Shown here in pieces: positions 238 through 20,284 of a DNA stretch of 33,771 nucleotides. Origin of the DNA: a virus; IMG/VR virus record IMGVR_UViG_3300030389_001299, positions 1 through 33,771 of that record; one strand, 5' to 3'. A program made the translations under genes and the position numbers. The notes below the pieces were generated by a model that made no database searches, was not told where the DNA came from, and was given only the letters and a program-made list of their open reading frames with translations. The number at the start of each line of letters is the position of its first letter. The first letter of the stretch is position 1.

Positions 238-308
238 GTATCTACAGAACCACTGATAGCAGTATTTTTTACTAAGTCCTCTCGTTTTATAAATAGTGCT
301 GTTGCCAT
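1..308 (-). CDS. Head-tail connector protein, N-terminal part (truncated by window start)
   Basis: The reading frame starts at ATG 308-306 and runs off the window after 102 codons, so the C-terminus is missing here. The ATG shares one base with the portal stop (TAATG), which indicates translational coupling. The protein begins MATALFIKREDL and is mostly helical and acidic. Its place directly after the portal, and its size, fit the adaptor/connector that docks under the portal. Residues 25-102 match, with substitutions, the first part of the partial gene at the right end of the window. Joining the two gives a protein of about 167 residues. The connector role is inferred from position and type; no catalytic motif is expected. 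Confidence 0.7.
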   Translation of the reverse strand, partial: MATALFIKREDLVKNTAISGSVDTDKFIHFIKLAQEIHVRNYLGTDLYDKISADIVAGSLAGDYLNLVNDYVQDMLIHYAMAEYLPFAAYTISNGGVFKHES

Positions 309-1537
309 TATTCTTCAGTTTGTTCGTTTATTTCTTCTTCTCTTTCTACATCATCTTTTTTTACACCTGTTTCTTTTTCTACTTCTGCTTCTGATATAGC
401 ATTGGTCAGATCAGTAAATTCTAAAGGTTGTAGTGTTTTAAAATACAGGTCTAAATCAATATTATTATACTCTAATATTTTTTGTAGTTCATCTATAATT
501 GTTACTTGCATTGGTCTAATAACGGTATTGTCCATAAGTATAGATGCTGTTTCTAATTCTTGTGCATTATTACCTAGACCAGTTTTGTCTTTGATTCCAA
601 CAAGCATAGGTGAAACTATTCTATGAGAAACCATAACCTTAGTCATAGATTCGTTTGCTAGAAACTCATATTGCTGGTAGGCATCAGGAATATTTACTGG
701 CTCAATAGTTGCAGCTAGTTCTTTACTATCGTTGAATGCTAATATAAATTTACCTGCATTTGATGATCCACTAAACTTCTCATAGATTGCTCTTTCTATT
801 TCGTCTCTTTGTTCTTTATTTGGTGTACCATTATTAAAGTTAATTAACATACTTGGTTGTAAACCATTTTGTATATTATTTATGTGATAGTTACCTATCT
901 CTTCTTCTAGTTCTGCATATTGTAAACCACCTTGATAATCTACTGGTGAATAGTAATAAAAACCTGCCTTGTATGGGCGTATATAAAGTATCTCTATGCC
1001 ATCTTTAGACATTCCGAATGCTGAGATACGTTTAGGCTCATCATCTTTCTTTATATCCTTCCATTTCGGGTGATAATAGTAAGCTCTTACTTTACCTTCT
1101 ATTGCTTTCTCAGCTCTTAGAGTTTCAATCGGTATATGTTCTACTTCAAATATTTTTGTTCTATCTTTTGTATAAATTACCTGAACTGCTGCTTGACCCA
1201 TCATTTTATAGTCATAGCAAACTTTTTTCATACATTCTTTAGTAAACAATTTTTTCATTTGCTCGTAAGCTTCAGGTTTTTCTTTACTATCTGAAGCATC
1301 TAATCCTCTACCATATATCATTTCTGATATACCATTGATAGCTGCATTGTTCGTAGCAGATCCGTTATATCTATCTATTAGGTATTGAAAGTATTGGTTA
1401 TCATCACCATATTCTATATAATCTTTTCTTGGGTTTTCTACTACTTCAGGTGAAGTGTAAGATGATAAATTTATAACGTGAACTGAATCTTTTGCCACTA
1501 TATTTACATTTTTAGATTTGTTTCTATTTCTTGCCAT
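308..1537 (-). CDS. Phage portal protein
   Basis: 409 residues, the usual length for a siphovirus portal of the SPP1/HK97 type. The ring of twelve sits at one capsid vertex, is the DNA channel, and docks terminase and tail. Recognisable features are the N-terminal segment with YIEYGDDNQYFQYLIDRYNGS, a central region ending in FLANESMTKVMVSHRIVSP, the G-rich KTGLGNNAQELE turn, and a helical C-terminus rich in Glu and Lys. The start ATG lies one base from the previous stop, and the stop overlaps the next ATG (TAATG). In this genome the portal comes after capsid and tail tube, not before them as usual. Family assignment is by eye from overall pattern. Confidence 0.85.
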   Translation of the reverse strand: MARNRNKSKNVNIVAKDSVHVINLSSYTSPEVVENPRKDYIEYGDDNQYFQYLIDRYNGSATNNAAINGISEMIYGRGLDASDSKEKPEAYEQMKKLFTKECMKKVCYDYKMMGQAAVQVIYTKDRTKIFEVEHIPIETLRAEKAIEGKVRAYYYHPKWKDIKKDDEPKRISAFGMSKDGIEILYIRPYKAGFYYYSPVDYQGGLQYAELEEEIGNYHINNIQNGLQPSMLINFNNGTPNKEQRDEIERAIYEKFSGSSNAGKFILAFNDSKELAATIEPVNIPDAYQQYEFLANESMTKVMVSHRIVSPMLVGIKDKTGLGNNAQELETASILMDNTVIRPMQVTIIDELQKILEYNNIDLDLYFKTLQPLEFTDLTNAISEAEVEKETGVKKDDVEREEEINEQTEE

Positions 1538-4729: not shown

Positions 4730-6303
4730 TATTTTTTACTTTTAGGATGCTTTTTAGGTAGTAAATCATAATCCGTAGTATACTTTGGATTTTGTGGTCT
4801 ACCATTTTTCACTAAATATAAGAATGCGTTGGTTCTTGCAAATGCCCACTGCGAAGCAGATCTGACCTTAGGAGAATGACTTGTGTTGAAAGCACCAAGT
4901 CCTCTTTGATATACACTAGCCAACATACCTACAGTTACACCATAACCTAATTTATCTTTATATCTTTTGTTAAAATCATCTGCTTTCTTTTGTAATGTAG
5001 CTCTATCTTTTGCAGATACCTTAGCACCTCTTTTACCCTTTGCTGTGCCTTTTGCAGTACCTTTACCTTTAGGATTGGGGTTTGGCGTACCTGAAGCTGG
5101 TGCTTTAGGTGATTTTCTTATGCCGCCTCTTGATCCTACTTTTGCATAGTAACCTTTTTTTCTTACACATTTACCAGTTTTATCTTTTACAAATCCTTTA
5201 GGACATTTTTGCATATCTTCTTTTATATGTTCTTTACAAGGCATATACCAATCTTTACCTTCAAAGTTATGTACGTGAAAACCTTCACATCCAATATTTT
5301 TAGCCATTTCTTCAGCTTTCTCTTTACTAGAATATGCTAGTCTGTCATCTATAATAGCGAAGTCATCATCTACAACTTGAGAAGCTAAATCTATCTCACC
5401 TAACTCTTTTAGTTTAGATACAGACCATCTAAGACCAGCTTTACCACCCCAAGCATCATACATAAGTTTACCACATCCATCAGAATATGTTTTTGATACT
5501 TCTAAGTCTTTTTTATGTCTAGCTAAAAAGCTTCTCATTCTTTTTATAGTAGAAACAGATAATGGTGTTTTTGATGCTAACATTGAAGCTCTACGTTTTC
5601 CTACAGCAGTGCCACAAGAACCCCAGCCATTTTTTTCTACATATTCTAATACCCTTTTAGCATTATTTACTACACCTTGAGGATAGTCACTATAAGATGC
5701 AAGTTGTGTTCTTTTAGATTCTATAAAGTCTTTTATTTCAAATAATATTTCTTGTGCCTCAGATTCATCTAATAATTCTGTACTCATTTCTACTTTATCT
5801 GTAAAATATCCTTCTATAGAAAAACCTGAAACTAAACCTGTCTTAACATAGTTTTCCCAAACGTCATCGTTGTTTACTTTCATAGAAACCATCCAAGTAC
5901 CTACTGGTAAATCCATATCGTATTTCCTAGACTTATCGTGTACTTCATCTTCTATTATCCAAGATTCTACTACAGATAAACCGTTAAGAGATGCTTGATG
6001 TTCTAGTGTAGATTTATTCTGATTGCCTTTCATAAGAAATAGTTCTGATGCTTTTCTTACTGTATCTTCAGAGAAGTAAATATAATATTCATCATCTTCT
6101 GTTTGACGATATATATTTTTGTTTGGCACTAAAGCAGCACCCATTAGTATTCTCTTTTCAGTATCTACTTCTGCTAATTGTATTTTATGGTCTTTTGATA
6201 AAGCAACAAACTTTTCTTCTATAGCAGGTTTATCAACTATGCTAATAGCTTCTATACCTGCAAGTAATGCTTCTTCGTCTATTATTAATTCTATAATTCT
6301 CAT
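4729..6303 (-). CDS. XkdF-like prohead protease fused to two C-terminal phage domains
   Basis: 524 residues, much longer than a plain prohead protease (about 180-220). Residues 1-170 match the XkdF-like serine protease pattern (Peptidase_S78_2): RILMGAALVPNKNIYR, then STLEHQ with candidate catalytic His102, then VSGFSIEGYF with candidate Ser162. Residues about 205-290 form a second conserved helical block (GWGSCGTAVGKRRASMLAS, then SDGCGKLMYDAWGG). Residues about 380-524 are a basic Gly/Lys/Pro-rich linker and a third block (TVGMLASVYQRGLGAF, then SASQWAFARTNAFL and NPKYTTDYDLLP) that I recall from other marine phage proteins. The start overlaps the tape measure stop as ATGA. The protease should mature the capsid; the extra domains are of unknown role. 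Confidence 0.8.
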   Translation of the reverse strand: MRIIELIIDEEALLAGIEAISIVDKPAIEEKFVALSKDHKIQLAEVDTEKRILMGAALVPNKNIYRQTEDDEYYIYFSEDTVRKASELFLMKGNQNKSTLEHQASLNGLSVVESWIIEDEVHDKSRKYDMDLPVGTWMVSMKVNNDDVWENYVKTGLVSGFSIEGYFTDKVEMSTELLDESEAQEILFEIKDFIESKRTQLASYSDYPQGVVNNAKRVLEYVEKNGWGSCGTAVGKRRASMLASKTPLSVSTIKRMRSFLARHKKDLEVSKTYSDGCGKLMYDAWGGKAGLRWSVSKLKELGEIDLASQVVDDDFAIIDDRLAYSSKEKAEEMAKNIGCEGFHVHNFEGKDWYMPCKEHIKEDMQKCPKGFVKDKTGKCVRKKGYYAKVGSRGGIRKSPKAPASGTPNPNPKGKGTAKGTAKGKRGAKVSAKDRATLQKKADDFNKRYKDKLGYGVTVGMLASVYQRGLGAFNTSHSPKVRSASQWAFARTNAFLYLVKNGRPQNPKYTTDYDLLPKKHPKSKK

Positions 6304-8549
6304 ATTCCTGCTGTGTTATTTATATTTCTATCTAATTCTTGTTGTGATGTAATTTCTTTGCCTACTACAAATGCTTTTACTGGTTTAGTAACTTGTCCTG
6401 ATACACTTTGTGCTAATTGTGATACTTGAGATTCACCTACCACATTAAAGTCAGGTGCTTCTACACTTATAGGTGCAGAACCTGCACCACTAGCACTACC
6501 ACCAGCACGAGCACCTGCTGCTCCACCACCACCAAACTTCTGTGCTAGTATTGTAGCTATAGATATACCTGCTGCTATATTATTTCTTAGTATCAAGGGT
6601 TCTACAACTGCTGTAAGTGTACCTAAAGCTGCAACGTTTTGTGCTCTAGCTGCTGCGTTAGCTGCTTGTGTTTTTATGATAACATCTGCTATTTTAGCAC
6701 CTTTTTCAATTAAGAATGCAGCTTTTGCTACCTTTTCATTTTCACCAGCTATATTTGTTAAAAATTGTGATATGCCTTGAGCAAAACCAACAAATTCTAG
6801 GTTAATTGCTTTTCTTCTTTCTAAAGTAGCTAATTCTTTATCTAATTGTAAATCTGCTATTTCCATTTGTGTAAATGCAAATTCTTTTCTTCTTTCTGCA
6901 AGTTGTGCTTCAGAGTCACCACTTGCTTTAGCTGTTTCTATTGCTGCGTTATTTGCTATTTGGTCTATTTCTAATTGCTGTGTTTTTGTATCAAAGAAAT
7001 CATTAGTAAACTGTGTAAATTTTCTAAGTCTATCAATTTCTGCATCTTCTATAGCTCTATTACTAGCTAAGACCTGTTGTCTTTCTTTTTCTGACAGCTT
7101 TTGTTTCTTCACAAAAAATGCTTCATCTATGGATATTAAAGTATCTCTAAATTTAGTATTTGCGTCTATCATCATAGACTGAAATTCTTTTTCTGCATTT
7201 GCTATTAATACATTTGCATTTTTTGCACCTTTAACTCTTTCTTTAAACTCTTCTAATCTTTTTTCTTCTCTTTCCTTAAATCTATCTAAAAGCCTTTGTG
7301 CTTCTTTGATTGTAAATTCTTTATCTAAATCTAAAAGTTCTTGTCTAGTTCTTCTTTCAAGCATCGCTGCATCTTTATCAAACTTTAATTTAAATTTAGA
7401 TATATCAAACAATCTTTCTTGGAATTCTCTAAATCTTCTTTTAGATCCAGCACCTGTTCTTTTAGTTATTTGTTCTTCTAGTTTCTCTTGTATTTCTGCT
7501 GCATCCTTTACAACTTGGTTGAACTGGTCAGAAGTGGCTTTTGATAATCGTTTAAATAACTCTACAGGGTCTCTATCATCTCCAAATAGTAATCTTGGTA
7601 GCAAACCTTTTCCATCTTCTCCTACACCAGTTGTTGTAAAAGTAGCTCTTAAGTTATCTAAAAAACCAATATTATCTTTTAATATTTGTCTTCTTTCATC
7701 TTCATCTTCAGTAGCTAGTAATTTTTGTTCTAGTTGTCTGTTTTTCTCATTCTTTAAGAATAAATCTCTGTTGGCTTCAAGAAGTGCTTCTAATTCAGCT
7801 CTAAGTGTAGCTTGTTTTATAAAATTCTCTGTAGCTTTTGTAAGGTCATCTATGCTTAATTTATTTTCTTTGTCAAGATTTATAATATTAGGCATTACTT
7901 TTTCAAGCTCTTTGAGTGCGTTGTTTCTTATCTTTTGTGGAACATTTGCTTTGCCTAATATATCTATATAGTTGTTTAACTCAACTTCTTGTGCTTCTAT
8001 AGCCTTAGTGGCTTCATCAAATTTCTTTTTAAAGTCTTCTAAAGCACCACCTGTTCCCTTAAAGAATTTAAGTAGTTTTGGACCAAAAGATATTAATAAT
8101 TGCAAAGCAATTAAAACACCACCTGTACCAATTAGACTTCTACCTAACTCTTTGAATGAAGCTATAAAACCACCATTGGTTTTAGCAAAACTTTGAAATA
8201 AACTTACTAACTGAGATAAGTTGTTTGCTATAGCTGTAAAACCAAAACTAGCATCTGAAGCTAACCTACCTGTTTCTAATAATATAGCGTTATTTAATCC
8301 TGATTGTGTTCTGTTTTTATTTGCTGCATTTGCTGCGTTTATTTGTGCTAAAGCAAGTTCTTGTACTTGTCTTTTAGTAATCTGTCTTTGTAAGTTGCTT
8401 TTCTCTTGTGCAATAGCATTAGCTAATTCAGATTTAGTCATTTTATCTATAGACTTAGATAAAACGTCTGTAGCTTTTTTAACTTCGTTAATTTTAGTTT
8501 TAGCTTCTCCTGACTGGAGATTTATCCTAATTAGAATTTCCTCTGCCAT
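6300..8549 (-). CDS. Tail tape measure protein
   Basis: 749 residues, the second-longest gene. Long heptad-like Lys/Glu-rich helices span residues about 10-80 and 160-560. A hydrophobic segment (about 140-160, LIGTGGVLIALQLLISFG) could reach the membrane on ejection. The C-terminal third is Ala/Gly-rich (AAARAQNVAALGTLTAVVE, then FGGGGAAGARAGGSASGAG). This architecture is typical of siphovirus tape measures, which set tail length; the general ratio of about 0.15 nm per residue would suggest a tail near 110 nm. The start ATG at 8549 lies inside the end of the preceding 52-aa gene, and the stop overlaps the protease start (ATGA). Confidence 0.85.
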   Translation of the reverse strand: MAEEILIRINLQSGEAKTKINEVKKATDVLSKSIDKMTKSELANAIAQEKSNLQRQITKRQVQELALAQINAANAANKNRTQSGLNNAILLETGRLASDASFGFTAIANNLSQLVSLFQSFAKTNGGFIASFKELGRSLIGTGGVLIALQLLISFGPKLLKFFKGTGGALEDFKKKFDEATKAIEAQEVELNNYIDILGKANVPQKIRNNALKELEKVMPNIINLDKENKLSIDDLTKATENFIKQATLRAELEALLEANRDLFLKNEKNRQLEQKLLATEDEDERRQILKDNIGFLDNLRATFTTTGVGEDGKGLLPRLLFGDDRDPVELFKRLSKATSDQFNQVVKDAAEIQEKLEEQITKRTGAGSKRRFREFQERLFDISKFKLKFDKDAAMLERRTRQELLDLDKEFTIKEAQRLLDRFKEREEKRLEEFKERVKGAKNANVLIANAEKEFQSMMIDANTKFRDTLISIDEAFFVKKQKLSEKERQQVLASNRAIEDAEIDRLRKFTQFTNDFFDTKTQQLEIDQIANNAAIETAKASGDSEAQLAERRKEFAFTQMEIADLQLDKELATLERRKAINLEFVGFAQGISQFLTNIAGENEKVAKAAFLIEKGAKIADVIIKTQAANAAARAQNVAALGTLTAVVEPLILRNNIAAGISIATILAQKFGGGGAAGARAGGSASGAGSAPISVEAPDFNVVGESQVSQLAQSVSGQVTKPVKAFVVGKEITSQQELDRNINNTAGI

Positions 8550-8685: not shown

Positions 8686-11168
8686 AACTGCTCGTCAGTT
8701 GTTAAATTAAGTAATTCAAGAGTAGCTTCTCCTGTGGTTAAGTTTGTGTTTATAGAATTAATCCGATACACCTTATCTTGTATCTTAAGTTGATCATTTA
8801 ACCTAAATTGTATCATAAAACTCGCAGGTAAATAAGCATTGTATTTGTATATTCTTTTTGCTTTGTTAAATACAGATTCTACATATGTTTTATAAAACTT
8901 CTTGTACAAAGAATTAGTTGTGCCATTGTAATCTATAAGCTGATATTCGTCAACTTCATTGTCAAAGTTAAGTGTATGAGCTGGTGGTCTAAATATTTTA
9001 TATCCTTCACCTGTAGTAAATATATTACTCTGTAAAGATAGCTGCGTATCACTGTCAACAGTTTTAACTAGGGTAGTAGTATTATCTGTAGTATTTTTTA
9101 CCACATCACCTACAGCTAAAGTAGATGTAAAGTTTTGCCCTGAATCAACTAATTTATTCTCTACTGTAGATGTAGTAGTGCCTGTTTCTAATGGTGATGC
9201 TTCGTTAGATCCTTCTTCGTTTGTGTTAGATGGTCTAAAGTATTTTGTCAGACCTAAGTTCGTGCTACCATCATTATAATTTATTTTTGTTGTAATACTG
9301 GTTTTATTTATCCCATAAAATAATAAAGGTTTTGTAAGTATAGGTTCATAATTACCTTTAGATGCTTTATCTGCTGCTACTTCTATTAATCCATTACCAT
9401 TTGTATCAACACCTTCTTCAAATCTAAAATCACCTTTAGCAGAATAGCCTACTTGTATTTCTGTAGCTGCTAAATCAGCATCACCCAAATCTAATAGTCT
9501 TTCAAATTTCATATGCTCAAAGGGTAATTGTATTTCGTATTTAGTACCTCTATCTATTTCATCAGGAAATACTTCTTCTAATTTAAACTCGGCATCACCA
9601 AATATTTTGTTAAACCTTTCTCTATGTTCTTCTGCTAACAATGTTTTAGGTTCTTGATATTTCAAATCTATTTCATTAAATGGTAAAGATACATCTACCC
9701 TATGTTGTCTTATATCTATAAAATCAGTTATATCTATTGTGCCACCTGATGGGTTACTGGTAGCTGATGTATAAAATGTATCTAATGTTTGTACTTTAAT
9801 TTTATTAAAGTCTACGTGAGATCTATCATCTATAAAAAATGCAGTAAGATTAAACATCTTAAACAAACCACCTAAAAAGTCTATTACTTTCATTTTAGGT
9901 ATGTGATCTAAAATATTAATATTTGTAATTAATGATAAAGAGGTATCTGTTTTATCATATGTTTCGGTTACATCTACAGCATCATCATCAGTACCAGTGT
10001 TAAATAAAAATGTTACTTTGGGCGTTATATCTAAAGCTATGGTCGAAGATACACTTACCTTTAAATTAACTGTTCCAATAGTATTATTATTTATTAGAAA
10101 ACCTACAGAGCCATTGTCACCTTTGGTTTTATTAGAAGCTACAATAGAACCTGTATCTACATTAGTTATTTTAATTGTGTATTCTTTATCTTGATTGCTT
10201 ACGGTTTTTATAAGCACTGTCATATCATAATTTTGTGTACTCGTGCCATCTGTAGTAATACTAAAAACCTCATTAGTGTAACTAACATTATCTATATTTA
10301 AAGATGTTGCATTAAATTCACTAGATTTCAATGTTCTAACAAAAGACTCCTCTGTATTACCTGAAGAATATTCATTAATATTGTCTTTGTTTCTACTTAG
10401 CCACATATATAGATTTGAAAAAGCAGTAGAGCTAAAAAAGTTGTTTGTACTTCCTGTTACATCTCTAGTAAAGCTAACAGAGTATTTACTTTCTATAGCT
10501 TCTATAATATGCAATACTCTTAAAGCTGGTTTTAAATCACTATATTCTAAACCTCTGTGGATGTTTTGTGAATTTGGATTTGATGGGTTATGATATATAT
10601 TACCATCAAAATTATCTTGAAATGCAAGACTACTTGACGAATTATAAAATAATCTTTTTTTACTTGTTATAAGTGGATATATGATTGAATCTGTTTGTGA
10701 ATTTAAATCTAACCCATCCTGTAAACCATTTGATACGTTAGTGCTACTATATTCGTGATCATAATTACTTAGATAAGATAAAGATTCTAATTCATCGTCA
10801 CCGATCAGATCCTTTAGTTTTATAAGATTGCTATAAAAAACTATCTCATATGAACTAGGTTTTTTCATCTTCATATTTACACCATTTAAAAACACTTTAC
10901 CAGTTTTAAATGATGCGTGATTTATAAATATTTCAGCATCTACTTTTTTTCTAGCATCAAAGAAATTACTTGTAATATTTGTTTTATAGAAATGTTTAAA
11001 TACTTTATTATTTGTATCGGAAGCAGGAATAGTAAATGTTTGTGTAAAGTCAGAAAATACCATTTTAATATCTCTGACATCTTGAATCTTTGATGTGTAT
11101 TCTATATTCTCATCATCAAATAAATCTAACCTTTCATTGTCTACAAATATTTGTACTACTCTTTTCAT
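8682..11168 (-). CDS. Large tail structural protein (828 aa), probable distal tail/baseplate component
   Basis: The longest protein of the window. The N-terminus, MKRVVQIFVDNERLDLFDDE, then SDFTQTFTIPASDTNNKVFKH, and VFYSNLIKLKDLIGDDELESL, is a pattern I recognise from large virion proteins of Bacteroidetes phages. The middle is Ser/Thr/Asn-rich and strand-rich (about residues 100-480). A conserved-looking stretch follows (IDIRQHRVDVSLPFNEIDLKYQ, about 480-505). The C-terminus contains KIQDKVYRINSINTNLTTGE, as in tail-tip proteins that end in a small beta domain. Start and stop both overlap neighbours (ATG/stop sharing at 11168, ATGA at 8682). A tail-tip role is inferred. Confidence 0.72.
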   Translation of the reverse strand: MKRVVQIFVDNERLDLFDDENIEYTSKIQDVRDIKMVFSDFTQTFTIPASDTNNKVFKHFYKTNITSNFFDARKKVDAEIFINHASFKTGKVFLNGVNMKMKKPSSYEIVFYSNLIKLKDLIGDDELESLSYLSNYDHEYSSTNVSNGLQDGLDLNSQTDSIIYPLITSKKRLFYNSSSSLAFQDNFDGNIYHNPSNPNSQNIHRGLEYSDLKPALRVLHIIEAIESKYSVSFTRDVTGSTNNFFSSTAFSNLYMWLSRNKDNINEYSSGNTEESFVRTLKSSEFNATSLNIDNVSYTNEVFSITTDGTSTQNYDMTVLIKTVSNQDKEYTIKITNVDTGSIVASNKTKGDNGSVGFLINNNTIGTVNLKVSVSSTIALDITPKVTFLFNTGTDDDAVDVTETYDKTDTSLSLITNINILDHIPKMKVIDFLGGLFKMFNLTAFFIDDRSHVDFNKIKVQTLDTFYTSATSNPSGGTIDITDFIDIRQHRVDVSLPFNEIDLKYQEPKTLLAEEHRERFNKIFGDAEFKLEEVFPDEIDRGTKYEIQLPFEHMKFERLLDLGDADLAATEIQVGYSAKGDFRFEEGVDTNGNGLIEVAADKASKGNYEPILTKPLLFYGINKTSITTKINYNDGSTNLGLTKYFRPSNTNEEGSNEASPLETGTTTSTVENKLVDSGQNFTSTLAVGDVVKNTTDNTTTLVKTVDSDTQLSLQSNIFTTGEGYKIFRPPAHTLNFDNEVDEYQLIDYNGTTNSLYKKFYKTYVESVFNKAKRIYKYNAYLPASFMIQFRLNDQLKIQDKVYRINSINTNLTTGEATLELLNLTTDEQL

Positions 11169-13799: not shown

Positions 13800-14297
13800 C
13801 TATTTAAATTTTATAGTTTTGTTACCTACATCTAATCCTTGCTCTTTTAATATGTCTTTTATAGAAACTTTTAAATCTTTTACAAATGGTGCAATAAGTT
13901 TTAAGTTACCACGTTCTCTATCTACAAGTGGTTTTATAAACACATTTTTATTTATTCCTACTCTACGTATTTTAAGTGTTACTCTACTTGCTATTTTTCT
14001 CAAACTTAGTGTACCATATAAGTCGACAGGTTTTTGTATAAGCCAGTTAGCTATATCTGATACTTGTGGTAATTTTGGTGGTTTACCACCTTCTTCTATA
14101 GTTTTAAGATAATCATTACCTACAATCTCAATTCCAAAAGCATCTAGAGAATCTTCTACAATATTTTGTCTAAGTGAATTCTTAGCAGCACCAGTATAGG
14201 TAATTTTCTTATTATCTAAGCTTTTCTTAAGTAATCTTATAAGTCTTTTAGAATAAGACTTTAAATATGCTTTTGTATTATTTAATTTTATTGACAT
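13800..14297 (-). CDS. Neck / tail completion protein (HK97 gp10-like)
   Basis: 165 residues, basic, alpha/beta. Key segment: YLKTIEEGGKPPKLPQVSDI followed by ANWLIQKPV, a pattern typical of HK97 gp10-like head-tail joining proteins, with the conserved E-x-G-x-x-P turn. The C-terminus is Lys-rich (VKDLKVSIKDILKEQG). The start overlaps the tail terminator gene by 10 bases. In the virion it would sit at the head-tail junction. The assignment is moderate: the turn motif and the neighbour support it. Confidence 0.68.
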   Translation of the reverse strand: MSIKLNNTKAYLKSYSKRLIRLLKKSLDNKKITYTGAAKNSLRQNIVEDSLDAFGIEIVGNDYLKTIEEGGKPPKLPQVSDIANWLIQKPVDLYGTLSLRKIASRVTLKIRRVGINKNVFIKPLVDRERGNLKLIAPFVKDLKVSIKDILKEQGLDVGNKTIKFK

Positions 14298-14779
14298 TCT
14301 GTTCCGTCTCTATTTAATAGTGCCATATCATTATTAGGTGTTCTGATCGATAAATCCATTGACCAACCTGTAACTTTATTTTCAAACTTATCTTCAAATA
14401 ACTGAGCTGTAGGATCTGTGTTTAGATGAAATAAATCATCATATAGTTCACCCCTTCTTATTGCAGACTGTATACCATTGACAACTGTAAGAAGTGTATT
14501 TTGTATATCGTGCTTGTTGTCTAAACCTAAATGTGGTTTTGACTTATCTTGCTTGTCATCTTTGTCTTCATCTACCAAATCCATCACAACAATATTTATG
14601 TTGATATTCATAATGTGTTCTTCAAATGCTACGTTTTGAATATTTATATGTGCCAATGGAAAAATAGTTTGTTTTGATAAATCAACTTCTAACAAATCAC
14701 CAAAGGTTACAGTATTGATAGAAACATTTCCATTTAGGTAAGTATGTAATTTATCAATAATATTATAATAGCTTTTCAT
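14288..14779 (-). CDS. Tail terminator-like protein
   Basis: 163 residues. It has SKQTIFPLAHINIQNVAFEE (about 35-54), then a strand pair NININIVVMDLVDEDKDD, then NTLLTVVNGIQSAIRRGELYDD and FENKVTGWSMDLSIRTPN at the C-terminus. I recognise this pattern from neck/tail terminator proteins of flavobacterial phages. ATG 14779-14777 overlaps the stop of the -1 frame of the tail chaperone gene as ATGA, so it is coupled to that frame. It would cap the tail tube after assembly. Confidence 0.68.
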   Translation of the reverse strand: MKSYYNIIDKLHTYLNGNVSINTVTFGDLLEVDLSKQTIFPLAHINIQNVAFEEHIMNININIVVMDLVDEDKDDKQDKSKPHLGLDNKHDIQNTLLTVVNGIQSAIRRGELYDDLFHLNTDPTAQLFEDKFENKVTGWSMDLSIRTPNNDMALLNRDGTECQ

Positions 14780-14934
14780 TTAAACTTCTTCTTTATCATT
14801 TGTCTTTCGAGATCGTTTTTTTGTTTTTCAAACGAGAGGAAGGTGAGACATTGGTGTATCGGAAGTTTTGTAACTTCGTCAAATTTTCTGACATCTCCTC
14901 TAGCGAGTGCATAAATTGATTGATACCAACCCCA
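14776..14934 (-). CDS. -1 frame extension of the tail assembly chaperone (GT-like)
   Basis: This is the -1 frame that follows a candidate slip site and would add 52 residues to residue 203 of the gene below, giving about 255 residues. It reads WGWYQSIYALARGDVRKFDE, then VTKLPIHQCLTFLSF and a Lys/Glu-rich end. The GWxxxIYxLARGD...VTKL pattern is what I recall from C-terminal parts of tail chaperones in Bacteroidetes phages. Third codon positions are mostly A/T here, as elsewhere in this genome, while the overlapping 0 frame is more G/C at third positions. Its stop overlaps the next ATG as ATGA. The frame is also open upstream to about 15051 with no ATG. Confidence 0.65.
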   Translation of the reverse strand, partial: WGWYQSIYALARGDVRKFDEVTKLPIHQCLTFLSFEKQKNDLERQMIKKKFK

Positions 14935-15542
14935 TTTTTTTCCAAAGCTTCCTTCAAGTCCGATGTTGTGTCCGTCTTCACTGTCTTGCGAATATAAGTC
15001 AGGGTAGCTTGTGATAATTCCATCCCTAAACGATAAAAAAAAACCATACAACCCATTACTACGTTAAGTGGCATTTCTTTCATCAATAGACTTATTTCAT
15101 CAGATGGTGAATAATCTGCAATCGTATATCTTTCTTTCTTTCTAAAATTAACTGGTCTGTAAAGTACAGCCATAGCTCTGTGCATATTTTGCCAATCACC
15201 AAGAAAGTTTTCTGCATCTACATATTCACCTAAACTCATATCATCTAATTTTGGTATGAATCCCATTTGCACATCTAGTAATTTAAATAATTGCACCAAT
15301 TCATAGTCTTTATCAAAAGCAGATGAAATAACATTCACCACTTTTATTACATCTTTGTAAGCAACCTTGTCAACCATCTTCTCTTCAATGCCACAGAAAT
15401 GCTCGATTAGCTTTTTGTTTATTGTCCTAGCATCTTTCTCAGGATCTAGCTTGTCTATGCTTTTTAGGTACTCTTGATATTGTCCAAGTGTAATCTCAGC
15501 TAGTGAGTTTGGCACAACAATCTTTACTTTTTCTTTTATCAT
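14796..15542 (-). CDS. Tail assembly chaperone, 0-frame product (248 aa)
   Basis: 248 residues. N-terminal part: VVPNSLAEITLGQYQEYLKS, then KLIEHFCGIEEKM, then the acidic PKLDDMSLGEYVDAENFLGD and YRPVNFRKKERYTI. I recall this as a standard flavobacterial phage protein upstream of tail genes. The C-terminal 45 residues (from about 204) overlap the -1 frame described separately; they look less protein-like and more G/C at third positions. In G/GT systems a minority of ribosomes shift and make a longer chaperone that binds the tape measure. The gene has a 207-bp non-coding leader, so it probably starts the tail operon. Confidence 0.72.
   Translation of the reverse strand: MIKEKVKIVVPNSLAEITLGQYQEYLKSIDKLDPEKDARTINKKLIEHFCGIEEKMVDKVAYKDVIKVVNVISSAFDKDYELVQLFKLLDVQMGFIPKLDDMSLGEYVDAENFLGDWQNMHRAMAVLYRPVNFRKKERYTIADYSPSDEISLLMKEMPLNVVMGCMVFFYRLGMELSQATLTYIRKTVKTDTTSDLKEALEKNGVGINQFMHSLEEMSENLTKLQNFRYTNVSPSSRLKNKKTISKDK
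14932..14941 (-). promoter_or_regulatory. Candidate -1 ribosomal slippery site A_AAA_AAT
   Basis: On the minus strand, GG-A7-TGG read in 0 frame as GAA AAA AAT gives the canonical heptamer A AAA AAT. After slipping one base back the next codon is TGG of the -1 frame. A second possible slip run of nine T (15035-15043, GG-T9-A) lies upstream in the same gene and leads into the same -1 frame. Confidence 0.6.
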
Positions 15543-19026: not shown

Positions 19027-19075
19027 AATTTAGCCTATTAAATTCATACTATTAAATTCAAGGGTATTGAATTTA
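19007..19075. repeat. Iteron-like repeat cluster B
   Basis: TATTAAATTCA occurs at 19007-19017, 19036-19046 and 19050-19060, with a variant TATTGAATTTA at 19065-19075 that reaches the terL stop codon. Spacing is irregular (29, 14, 15), unlike the 17-base period of cluster A. Confidence 0.85.
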
Positions 19076-20284
19076 CCGAATAACATAAGTACCTTTTGGA
19101 TTGCTACGCAGAAGTAAATACTCAACAGCATACCTCATCGCATCGACACCGTGATTGTAAGCATCTCTCGGCTTGACACCCCTGATATCCCAAACATAGT
19201 TGTTGAATTCTTTGACAAGGTTTTCTCCATCCAAGTTGATGTTGTAATCCTGCATCAAAGCAATACCTGTTACAATACTGCCCTTCTTCTTGACAGTGGC
19301 AGTGCAATTCAACCCTCTTGAATTCAGCTCGGCAATCAGACGAGGTTCGCTGGAGTCTACAACAATAAGTCTTTTTCCTGCATATCTTAAACATAAGTCA
19401 TAAATATTTGAAGTAACTAACCCTTTTTTATAAAAGTGTTCCTTAACCCAAATAATCTTTCTAAGTTTATCTACTGCAACTTCTGTAAGCACAGACTCAT
19501 CTCTAGCAAATCCAATGTCTAATCCAAAACAACTTATTGGTATATCCCTATTGAATTGTCCGATCTGCCAATCTTCAAATACAACTCCTTCAGCTTTCTG
19601 TAACCAACCACCCATTATCTGGTGCTGATACTTCTGTGGTCTTCTTACTTTCATTTCTTTTACTTGATTTACAAAAGACTCTGACAAATGTTCTTCGTTA
19701 TCCAAGTAGGTAGTATGAATATACGTAACCCCATCTTTAGACCCATTGAATCCATCAGCAATACCTCTATTCTGAAAGAACCTCTGATATACCCAATGCT
19801 CTTTTGTGGTGGGATTTAATATAAGTAAAACTCTATTAGTAGATATTTTAGATCTGATACTATAATCTATCTTATCAAAATTATCTTCTTCCATAAGCTC
19901 CTCTGCTTCATCAAGCACAAAAGTATTTACACCACTAATAGATTTTAGTTTGGCAGTCTGATCTCCACTAGCAGTTTTTATGCCTGAGAAATATATAGAA
20001 GAACCAGTGACCTTATTTTTGATTTCATATTTGGTGACCTCAAAGTTTTCTATCACTCCCATTAAATTCAGTTTCTCTACAAACTCAGGAATAATCGACA
20101 TAGAGGCAGAAGTCATCGTATACCTAGTAAAGAGTACCCTGTTGTTCTTTTCATACGTTAGAAGTGCTAAAAATACCGTTACAGCAAATGATTTACCTGA
20201 TCCTCTACCACCAGTAATTACGACATATCTATCCTTTGTCTGAAACAGACTTTGATACTTTGGGTTTAGATTGAGCTTTTGCAT
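19073..20284 (-). CDS. terL: Terminase large subunit
   Basis: 403 residues. ATPase domain: Walker A GGRGSGKS (25-32), Walker B VLDEAEE (123-129), coupling motif LILNPT (about 154-159). RNase H-like nuclease domain with three Asp: GLDIGFARD (Asp256), IVVDSSEPR (Asp310), NHGVDAMRYA (Asp381). It packages DNA into the prohead through the portal and cuts the concatemer. The start overlaps the end of the 64-aa gene by 56 bases. The nuclease half has noticeably higher G+C than the rest. The stop codon sits inside the last repeat of cluster B. Confidence 0.95.
   Translation of the reverse strand: MQKLNLNPKYQSLFQTKDRYVVITGGRGSGKSFAVTVFLALLTYEKNNRVLFTRYTMTSASMSIIPEFVEKLNLMGVIENFEVTKYEIKNKVTGSSIYFSGIKTASGDQTAKLKSISGVNTFVLDEAEELMEEDNFDKIDYSIRSKISTNRVLLILNPTTKEHWVYQRFFQNRGIADGFNGSKDGVTYIHTTYLDNEEHLSESFVNQVKEMKVRRPQKYQHQIMGGWLQKAEGVVFEDWQIGQFNRDIPISCFGLDIGFARDESVLTEVAVDKLRKIIWVKEHFYKKGLVTSNIYDLCLRYAGKRLIVVDSSEPRLIAELNSRGLNCTATVKKKGSIVTGIALMQDYNINLDGENLVKEFNNYVWDIRGVKPRDAYNHGVDAMRYAVEYLLLRSNPKGTYVIR

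What the first reader, a model, noticed from the sequence alone, without database searches (positions are those of the whole stretch)
14776..15051. Dual-frame end of the tail assembly chaperone gene with a canonical -1 slip site
Seen: the 248-aa frame and a -1 frame are both open over about 240-275 bp in an AT-rich genome. A canonical A_AAA_AAT heptamer (14934-14941) lies in 0 frame, and a GG-T9 run (15035-15045) could also shift into the same frame. The -1 frame has the A/T-rich third positions usual here and the GWYQSIYALARGD...VTKL pattern, and its stop overlaps the next ATG as ATGA. Known: tail chaperones (lambda G/GT) use -1 frameshifting. Unusual: the 0 frame stays open for 45 more codons instead of stopping soon after the slip site, so both products may have real, different C-termini. 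Alternative: a homopolymer length error.
Basis: partly seen in the sequence, partly recalled or inferred. Interest (0 to 1): 0.7.

Follow-up and report, generated by a model that had tools for sequence, protein, structure and literature searches.

The report
Tail-gene frameshift with two conserved endings
In a large group of phages related to ones that infect marine flavobacteria, a gene that is probably a tail-assembly chaperone switches reading frame at an invariant run of nine T's, and, unlike in familiar phages, most members keep both reading frames meaningful for another 50-85 codons, so one stretch of DNA encodes two different conserved protein endings.

Summary
The dual-frame observation is real and conserved. 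A run of at least nine T's is present in all 306 locus stretches examined, from IMG/VR, a Bacteroidetes MAG and the isolates Nonlabens phages P12024L/S, down to about 30% protein identity. A_AAA_AAT occurs in 11 of 63 divergent representatives. The -1 frame is conserved from the T run onward and has no conserved start codon. Conditioned on the -1 protein and codon usage, 59 representatives should show about 114 stop codons in the first ~50 zero-frame codons past the slip; none is seen, and stops return to expectation farther on. Synonymous changes in the -1 frame are also reduced inside the overlap. In the other direction, 124 stops were expected in the -1 frame and none seen. So about 50-85 codons (79 in the window) code in two frames, giving products of 248 and 255 aa. 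This is best read as a lambda G/GT-like tail chaperone with both C-termini under selection. Whether ribosomes slip on U_UUU_UUU or RNA polymerase slips on T9 is open. New variant of a known kind.

The parts
14796..15542 (-). 0-frame ORF, 248 aa, probable tail assembly chaperone (gpG-like product); ATG at 15542
   Evidence: PHROG 32199 (unknown function) E 3.6e-18; conserved in 36 aligned relatives
15035..15043 (-). T9 run, the invariant slip site; in-frame heptamer T_TTT_TTT at 15036-15042 (codons GTT TTT TTT TAT)
   Evidence: T run of 9 or 10 in all 306 stretches examined; never 7 or 8, never a TTC
14779..15036 (-). -1 frame continuation, 86 codons after the shift (LSFRDG...MIKKKFK); predicted fusion product 169 + 86 = 255 aa; stop TGA at 14776-14778 overlaps the next ATG
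   Evidence: aligned in 39 relatives, invariant FFLxF, F33, WG, Y40, L69; 0 stops against 124 expected
14799..15036 (-). dual-coded overlap, about 79 codons read in both 0 and -1 frames
   Evidence: stop avoidance in both directions; reduced -1 synonymous change inside the overlap
14934..14940 (-).
   Evidence: only 11 of 63 divergent representatives have it; lies about 100 nt inside the conserved -1 domain
14288..14779 (-). next gene, 163 aa, start codon overlapping the -1 stop (ATGA)
   Evidence: PHROG 30964, unknown function
6300..8549 (-). 749-aa ORF, candidate tape measure protein (an inference from length and character, not shown)
   Evidence: C-terminal similarity to P12024L_50; PHROG 30292 of unknown function

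Best explanation
The locus is a phage tail-assembly-chaperone gene with a programmed -1 frame transition. Most translation yields the 248-aa 0-frame product. A minority of events at the T9 run switch to the -1 frame (two Phe-tRNAs re-pairing on U_UUU_UUU, slightly favoured, or RNA polymerase adding a U, not excluded) and yield a 255-aa product that shares residues 1-169 and ends in an 86-residue, predicted helical, T-like domain. By analogy with lambda, the shared part would bind the tape measure and the T-like part would recruit the major tail protein. What differs from the usual layout is that the 0 frame does not stop soon after the slip: in most of this family it continues 50-85 codons over the same DNA and that extension is itself under selection. 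Shown: conservation of the slip site and of both frames, stop avoidance, reduced synonymous change. Inferred: that the shift happens and at what level, the chaperone role, and what the 0-frame extension does.
For: T run of at least 9 with in-frame T_TTT_TTT in all stretches examined, in a scan whose patterns did not touch the slip site as well. Phe codons are TTT in all slip sites while TTC is about 25% of Phe codons upstream in the same gene. -1 frame conserved from the T run on, without a conserved ATG/GTG. Stop avoidance: 0 seen against 78 and about 114 expected in the 0 frame, returning to expectation beyond the usual 0-frame end; 0 against 124 in the -1 frame. Aa-standardised -1 synonymous difference 0.083 in the overlap against 0.153 in the -1-only tail for close pairs, 0.251 against 0.329 for mid-range pairs. 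Same slip in isolates P12024L/S, which GenBank annotates as two separate genes. Chaperone role: Foldseek match to an annotated tail assembly chaperone (A0A8S5V8Z8, E 0.022, prob 0.98); profile match to a Flavobacterium phage 6H gene that lies a few genes before its annotated tail protein and is followed by an unannotated -1 ORF.
Against: No direct evidence of frameshifting, of either product, or of chaperone function. No Pfam or NCBIfam family hits. U_UUU_UUU is described as much less shift-prone than A_AAA_AAG in E. coli (PMC5009743), and no downstream RNA structure (mean z -0.28) and no clear Shine-Dalgarno-like stimulator was found. The gene follows the terminase region and is separated from the candidate tape measure gene by five ORFs. 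The 0-frame extension is less conserved than the -1 domain and its model has low confidence (pLDDT about 55, below 50 past residue 221).
Confidence: 0.8

Rival explanations
1. The frame change is made by RNA polymerase slipping on the nine T's (transcriptional slippage), producing a mixed mRNA population; ribosomes then read normally.
For: The run is 9 or 10 T in every stretch, never 7 or 8, although a ribosomal slip needs only seven. The codon before the slip is always NTT, with V, L, F and I all used, a restriction met by only 8 of 41 mainly V/L/I columns. Runs of 9 A or T are reported to slip with high efficiency in bacteria (PMC5009743). No RNA stimulator found.
Against: The frameshifting tail chaperones described in the literature read here use ribosomal -1 shifting (PMC5009743). 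The flanking T's are also forced by the amino acids (hydrophobic residue before, Y/W in frame 0 and L in frame -1 after), and nine-T runs occur elsewhere in these genomes.
Confidence: 0.4
2. The -1 ORF is a separate gene translated from its own start, with no fusion.
For: P12024L ORF41 is annotated from an internal ATG that overlaps the 0-frame stop, which would suit translational coupling in that lineage.
Against: No conserved ATG or GTG upstream of the conserved -1 region; most loci have none between the upstream -1 stop and the T run. Conservation begins at the T run, upstream of the P12024L ATG.
Confidence: 0.05
3. Only the -1 frame is functional past the slip; the open 0 frame is a by-product of the -1 protein's composition.
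For: The 0-frame extension is less conserved than the -1 frame, some of its conserved residues are forced by -1 codons such as TGG GGN, and one isolate clade has only 16-25 codons of it.
Against: 0 stops seen against 78-114 expected with -1 amino acids held fixed, with an abrupt return to expectation where the 0 frame usually ends; -1 synonymous change is suppressed within the overlap compared with the -1-only tail after standardising by amino acid.
Confidence: 0.07
4. Homopolymer sequencing or assembly error, or a decayed gene.
For: The run is a homopolymer; locus L037 has one -1 frame stop.
Against: Same T9 and same frame break in all 306 stretches from many projects and in two isolate genomes; both frames under constraint.
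Confidence: 0.01

Closest known systems
Phage lambda G/GT tail assembly chaperone and its counterparts (HK97-like, P2 E/E')
   Same: A -1 frame transition late in a phage structural-region gene gives a short product and a product with an alternative C-terminal domain; the -1 domain here is small and predicted helical; slip site of the X_XXY_YYZ form.
   Different: No detectable sequence membership. Slip site is T9 (T_TTT_TTT). The 0 frame runs 50-85 codons beyond the slip and is under selection there, whereas the mean slip-to-stop distance in SEA-PHAGES chaperones is 26 nt (PMC10885494). The two products are almost equal in length (248 and 255 aa).
Nonlabens (Persicivirga) phages P12024L and P12024S, genes 40/41 and 38/39
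   Same: Homologous 0-frame and -1-frame proteins and the same CTTTTTTTTTATCATTTAGGG slip.
   Different: The 0 frame ends about 25 codons after the slip; annotated as two unrelated hypothetical proteins.
Transcriptional slippage at T9/A9 runs (Thermus dnaX, Shigella mxiE and spa13)
   Same: Nine-T homopolymer as the frame-changing signal.
   Different: Those are cellular genes; here the run is also a perfect -1 ribosomal heptamer and no mRNA data exist.

Membership tests
lambda G/GT-type tail assembly chaperone | conserved -1 frame relation between the main ORF and a C-terminal domain ORF | tested here: met
lambda G/GT-type tail assembly chaperone | conserved slippery heptamer in the 0 frame | tested here: met
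   T_TTT_TTT in frame in every locus whose frames could be followed
lambda G/GT-type tail assembly chaperone | 0 frame ends shortly after the slip | tested here: not met
   50-85 codons in 59 of 63 divergent representatives; 16-39 in the rest
lambda G/GT-type tail assembly chaperone | sequence family (Pfam, NCBIfam, PHROG chaperone models) | tested here: inconclusive
   no Pfam or NCBIfam hit; PHROG families of unknown function
lambda G/GT-type tail assembly chaperone | fold of the shared domain | tested here: inconclusive
   nothing convincing in PDB; one annotated chaperone in BFVD at E 0.022, prob 0.98
lambda G/GT-type tail assembly chaperone | gene lies directly before the tape measure gene | tested here: inconclusive
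   five ORFs lie between it and the candidate tape measure ORF, whose identity is itself inferred
lambda G/GT-type tail assembly chaperone | low-level frameshifting and binding to tape measure and major tail protein | not testable with these tools
   needs expression and binding assays
Transcriptional slippage site | homopolymer of at least nine A or T | tested here: met
   9 or 10 T in all stretches
Transcriptional slippage site | heterogeneous mRNA at the run | not testable with these tools
   needs RNA sequencing
Overlapping (dual-coding) genes | purifying selection in both frames | tested here: met
   an approximate resampling test, not a full codon model

The most novel reading that the evidence does not exclude
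A tail chaperone whose frame change is made by RNA polymerase slippage at an obligatory T9, producing two nearly equal-sized proteins with alternative, dual-coded C-terminal domains, each with its own function in tail assembly.
Probability: 0.25. Interest if true: 0.75.

Novelty: new variant of a known kind. Interest (0 to 1): 0.5.

Why it matters
Frameshifted tail chaperones are usually seen as one protein plus an optional extension. Here a large phage family has, for most members, kept both endings alive on the same DNA, which makes it a natural test of what the 0-frame ending does and of how long overlaps evolve over a programmed frameshift. It also gives a simple annotation rule (NTT TTT TTT T followed by FFLxF...WGWY in the -1 frame) that recovers a protein half missed or split in GenBank records, and a case in which ribosomal and transcriptional slippage can be told apart by experiment.

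Tried and rejected
A_AAA_AAT as the slip site: rejected as the main one, 11 of 63 representatives. Other in-frame heptamers downstream (AAATTTG, TTTAAAC, GGGAAAA) are lineage-specific. Downstream RNA structure as stimulator: not seen, mean z -0.28 and -0.23; Shine-Dalgarno-like match only slightly better than an upstream control. PDB fold search of the 0-frame model: no match with E at or below 0.001, and the second look by VIA-align gave only helix-pair matches with Z under 5. The -1 domain alone modelled poorly (pLDDT 62.8) and was not searched. Pfam and NCBIfam: nothing. Literature searches found no account of this overlap, but most subscription papers are not held; the P2 E/E' paper was not readable.

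Full report
What is there. On the minus strand, an ATG at 15542 opens a 248-aa ORF that ends at 14796. A -1 frame ORF overlaps its 3' part and ends at 14776, its TGA overlapping the ATG of the next gene. The 0 frame reads GTT TTT TTT TAT at the T9 run (15035-15043), so that T_TTT_TTT lies in frame at 15036-15042.

Which slip site. The -1 peptide has at least 584 relatives in IMG/VR, and alignments run from FFL, which is the T run itself, to the end. In the first 80 loci and the window, the in-frame T_TTT_TTT is always present (in L037 it is present but the -1 frame carries one later stop). Three further scans brought the set to 306 stretches. Of these 303 passed the automatic two-frame filter and the other three (L037, and L281 and L302, which run off the contig end) were read by eye; all have T9 or T10. 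Some loci are the same contig fetched twice, so the count is of stretches, not of independent viruses; after clustering there are 63 divergent representatives. The scan used peptide patterns away from the slip site, so its 79 out of 79 are not a selection effect. A_AAA_AAT occurs in 11 of 63 representatives. The nearest upstream -1 stop lies 9-87 nt before the T run, and most loci have no ATG or GTG between it and the slip.

Both frames are selected. I fixed the -1 amino acids, resampled synonymous codons with the gene family's usage, and counted 0-frame stops. With 30 representatives, codons 3-57 past the slip had 0 stops against 78 expected, and then 53 against 50 and 66 against 55 farther on. 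With 59 representatives that have an extension of at least 50 codons, codons 3-51 had 0 against about 114, and from codon 63 on the counts matched expectation. Because representatives were chosen there for a long extension, the zero in codons 3-51 is partly built in for that second set; one search used no such filter. In the four short-extension representatives stops appear at the expected rate after their own 0-frame end. The reverse test gave 0 against 124 and the third frame had 180 stops. For close pairs, -1 synonymous differences standardised by amino acid were 0.083 in the overlap and 0.153 in the -1-only tail; for mid-range pairs 0.251 and 0.329; for distant pairs 0.36 and 0.429. In the 0 frame, synonymous differences fall from 0.375 upstream to 0.11-0.13 in the overlap. 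These are approximate tests: pairs are not independent and no full codon model was fitted.

Extension length and history. Counting whole codons after the heptamer, the 0 frame goes on for 16-25 codons in the clade of the Nonlabens isolates, 36-39 in a small second clade, and 50-84 in the others. Both short classes form single well-supported sides of the tree; long branches meet there and the root is only a midpoint, so growth of the extension by overprinting is possible but not shown.

What it probably does. The -1 frame arrangement, the slip site and the small helical second domain are what lambda G/GT shows (PMC5009743). Fold comparison reaches one annotated tail assembly chaperone weakly (E 0.022) and a 191-aa protein of Flavobacterium phage 6H, which also aligns by profile (E 4.5e-4, probability 33). 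In 6H that gene is followed by an unannotated -1 ORF in a gap of about 300 nt. No curated family model names the window's gene, so the chaperone role is an inference.

How the frame changes. Ribosomal slippage on U_UUU_UUU is slightly favoured because the frameshifting chaperones described in the literature read here use it. Transcriptional slippage is a serious rival: the run is never shorter than nine, the codon before it is always NTT with four different residues, a restriction seen in only 8 of 41 mainly V/L/I columns, nine T is the run length at which bacterial polymerases are reported to slip efficiently (PMC5009743), and no RNA stimulator was found.

How unusual. In SEA-PHAGES chaperones the slip-to-stop distance averages 26 nt (PMC10885494); here it is about 240 nt, and the extra sequence is under selection. 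I found no description of this in the papers held. I call it a new variant of a known kind.

Noticed in passing
L307 (Flavobacterium phage 6H, KC959568) 9950-10927, minus strand: The gap of about 300 nt after AGN89393 holds an unannotated -1 frame ORF ending PLWEILIRMYDITKRSLDEEAAYKKLEKK, probably the T-like half of a chaperone in Duneviridae, without a T9.
   Followed up: partly
L081 6528-6695 (P12024L ORF41, AFM54761): GenBank annotates only the part of the -1 domain after an internal ATG; conservation starts about 30 codons earlier, at the T run.
   Followed up: yes
window 14934-14940 and L002, L003, L018, L024, L026 and others: A_AAA_AAT recurs in part of the family; a second, lineage-specific shift giving a third product is not excluded.
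   Followed up: partly
window 19122-19394, minus strand: A 90-aa ORF inside the terminase gene in another frame; not examined.
   Followed up: no
window 308-1537 to 19073-20284, minus strand: Gene order is unusual: terminase and tail-like genes come before the protease, major capsid and portal genes in the direction of transcription.
   Followed up: no
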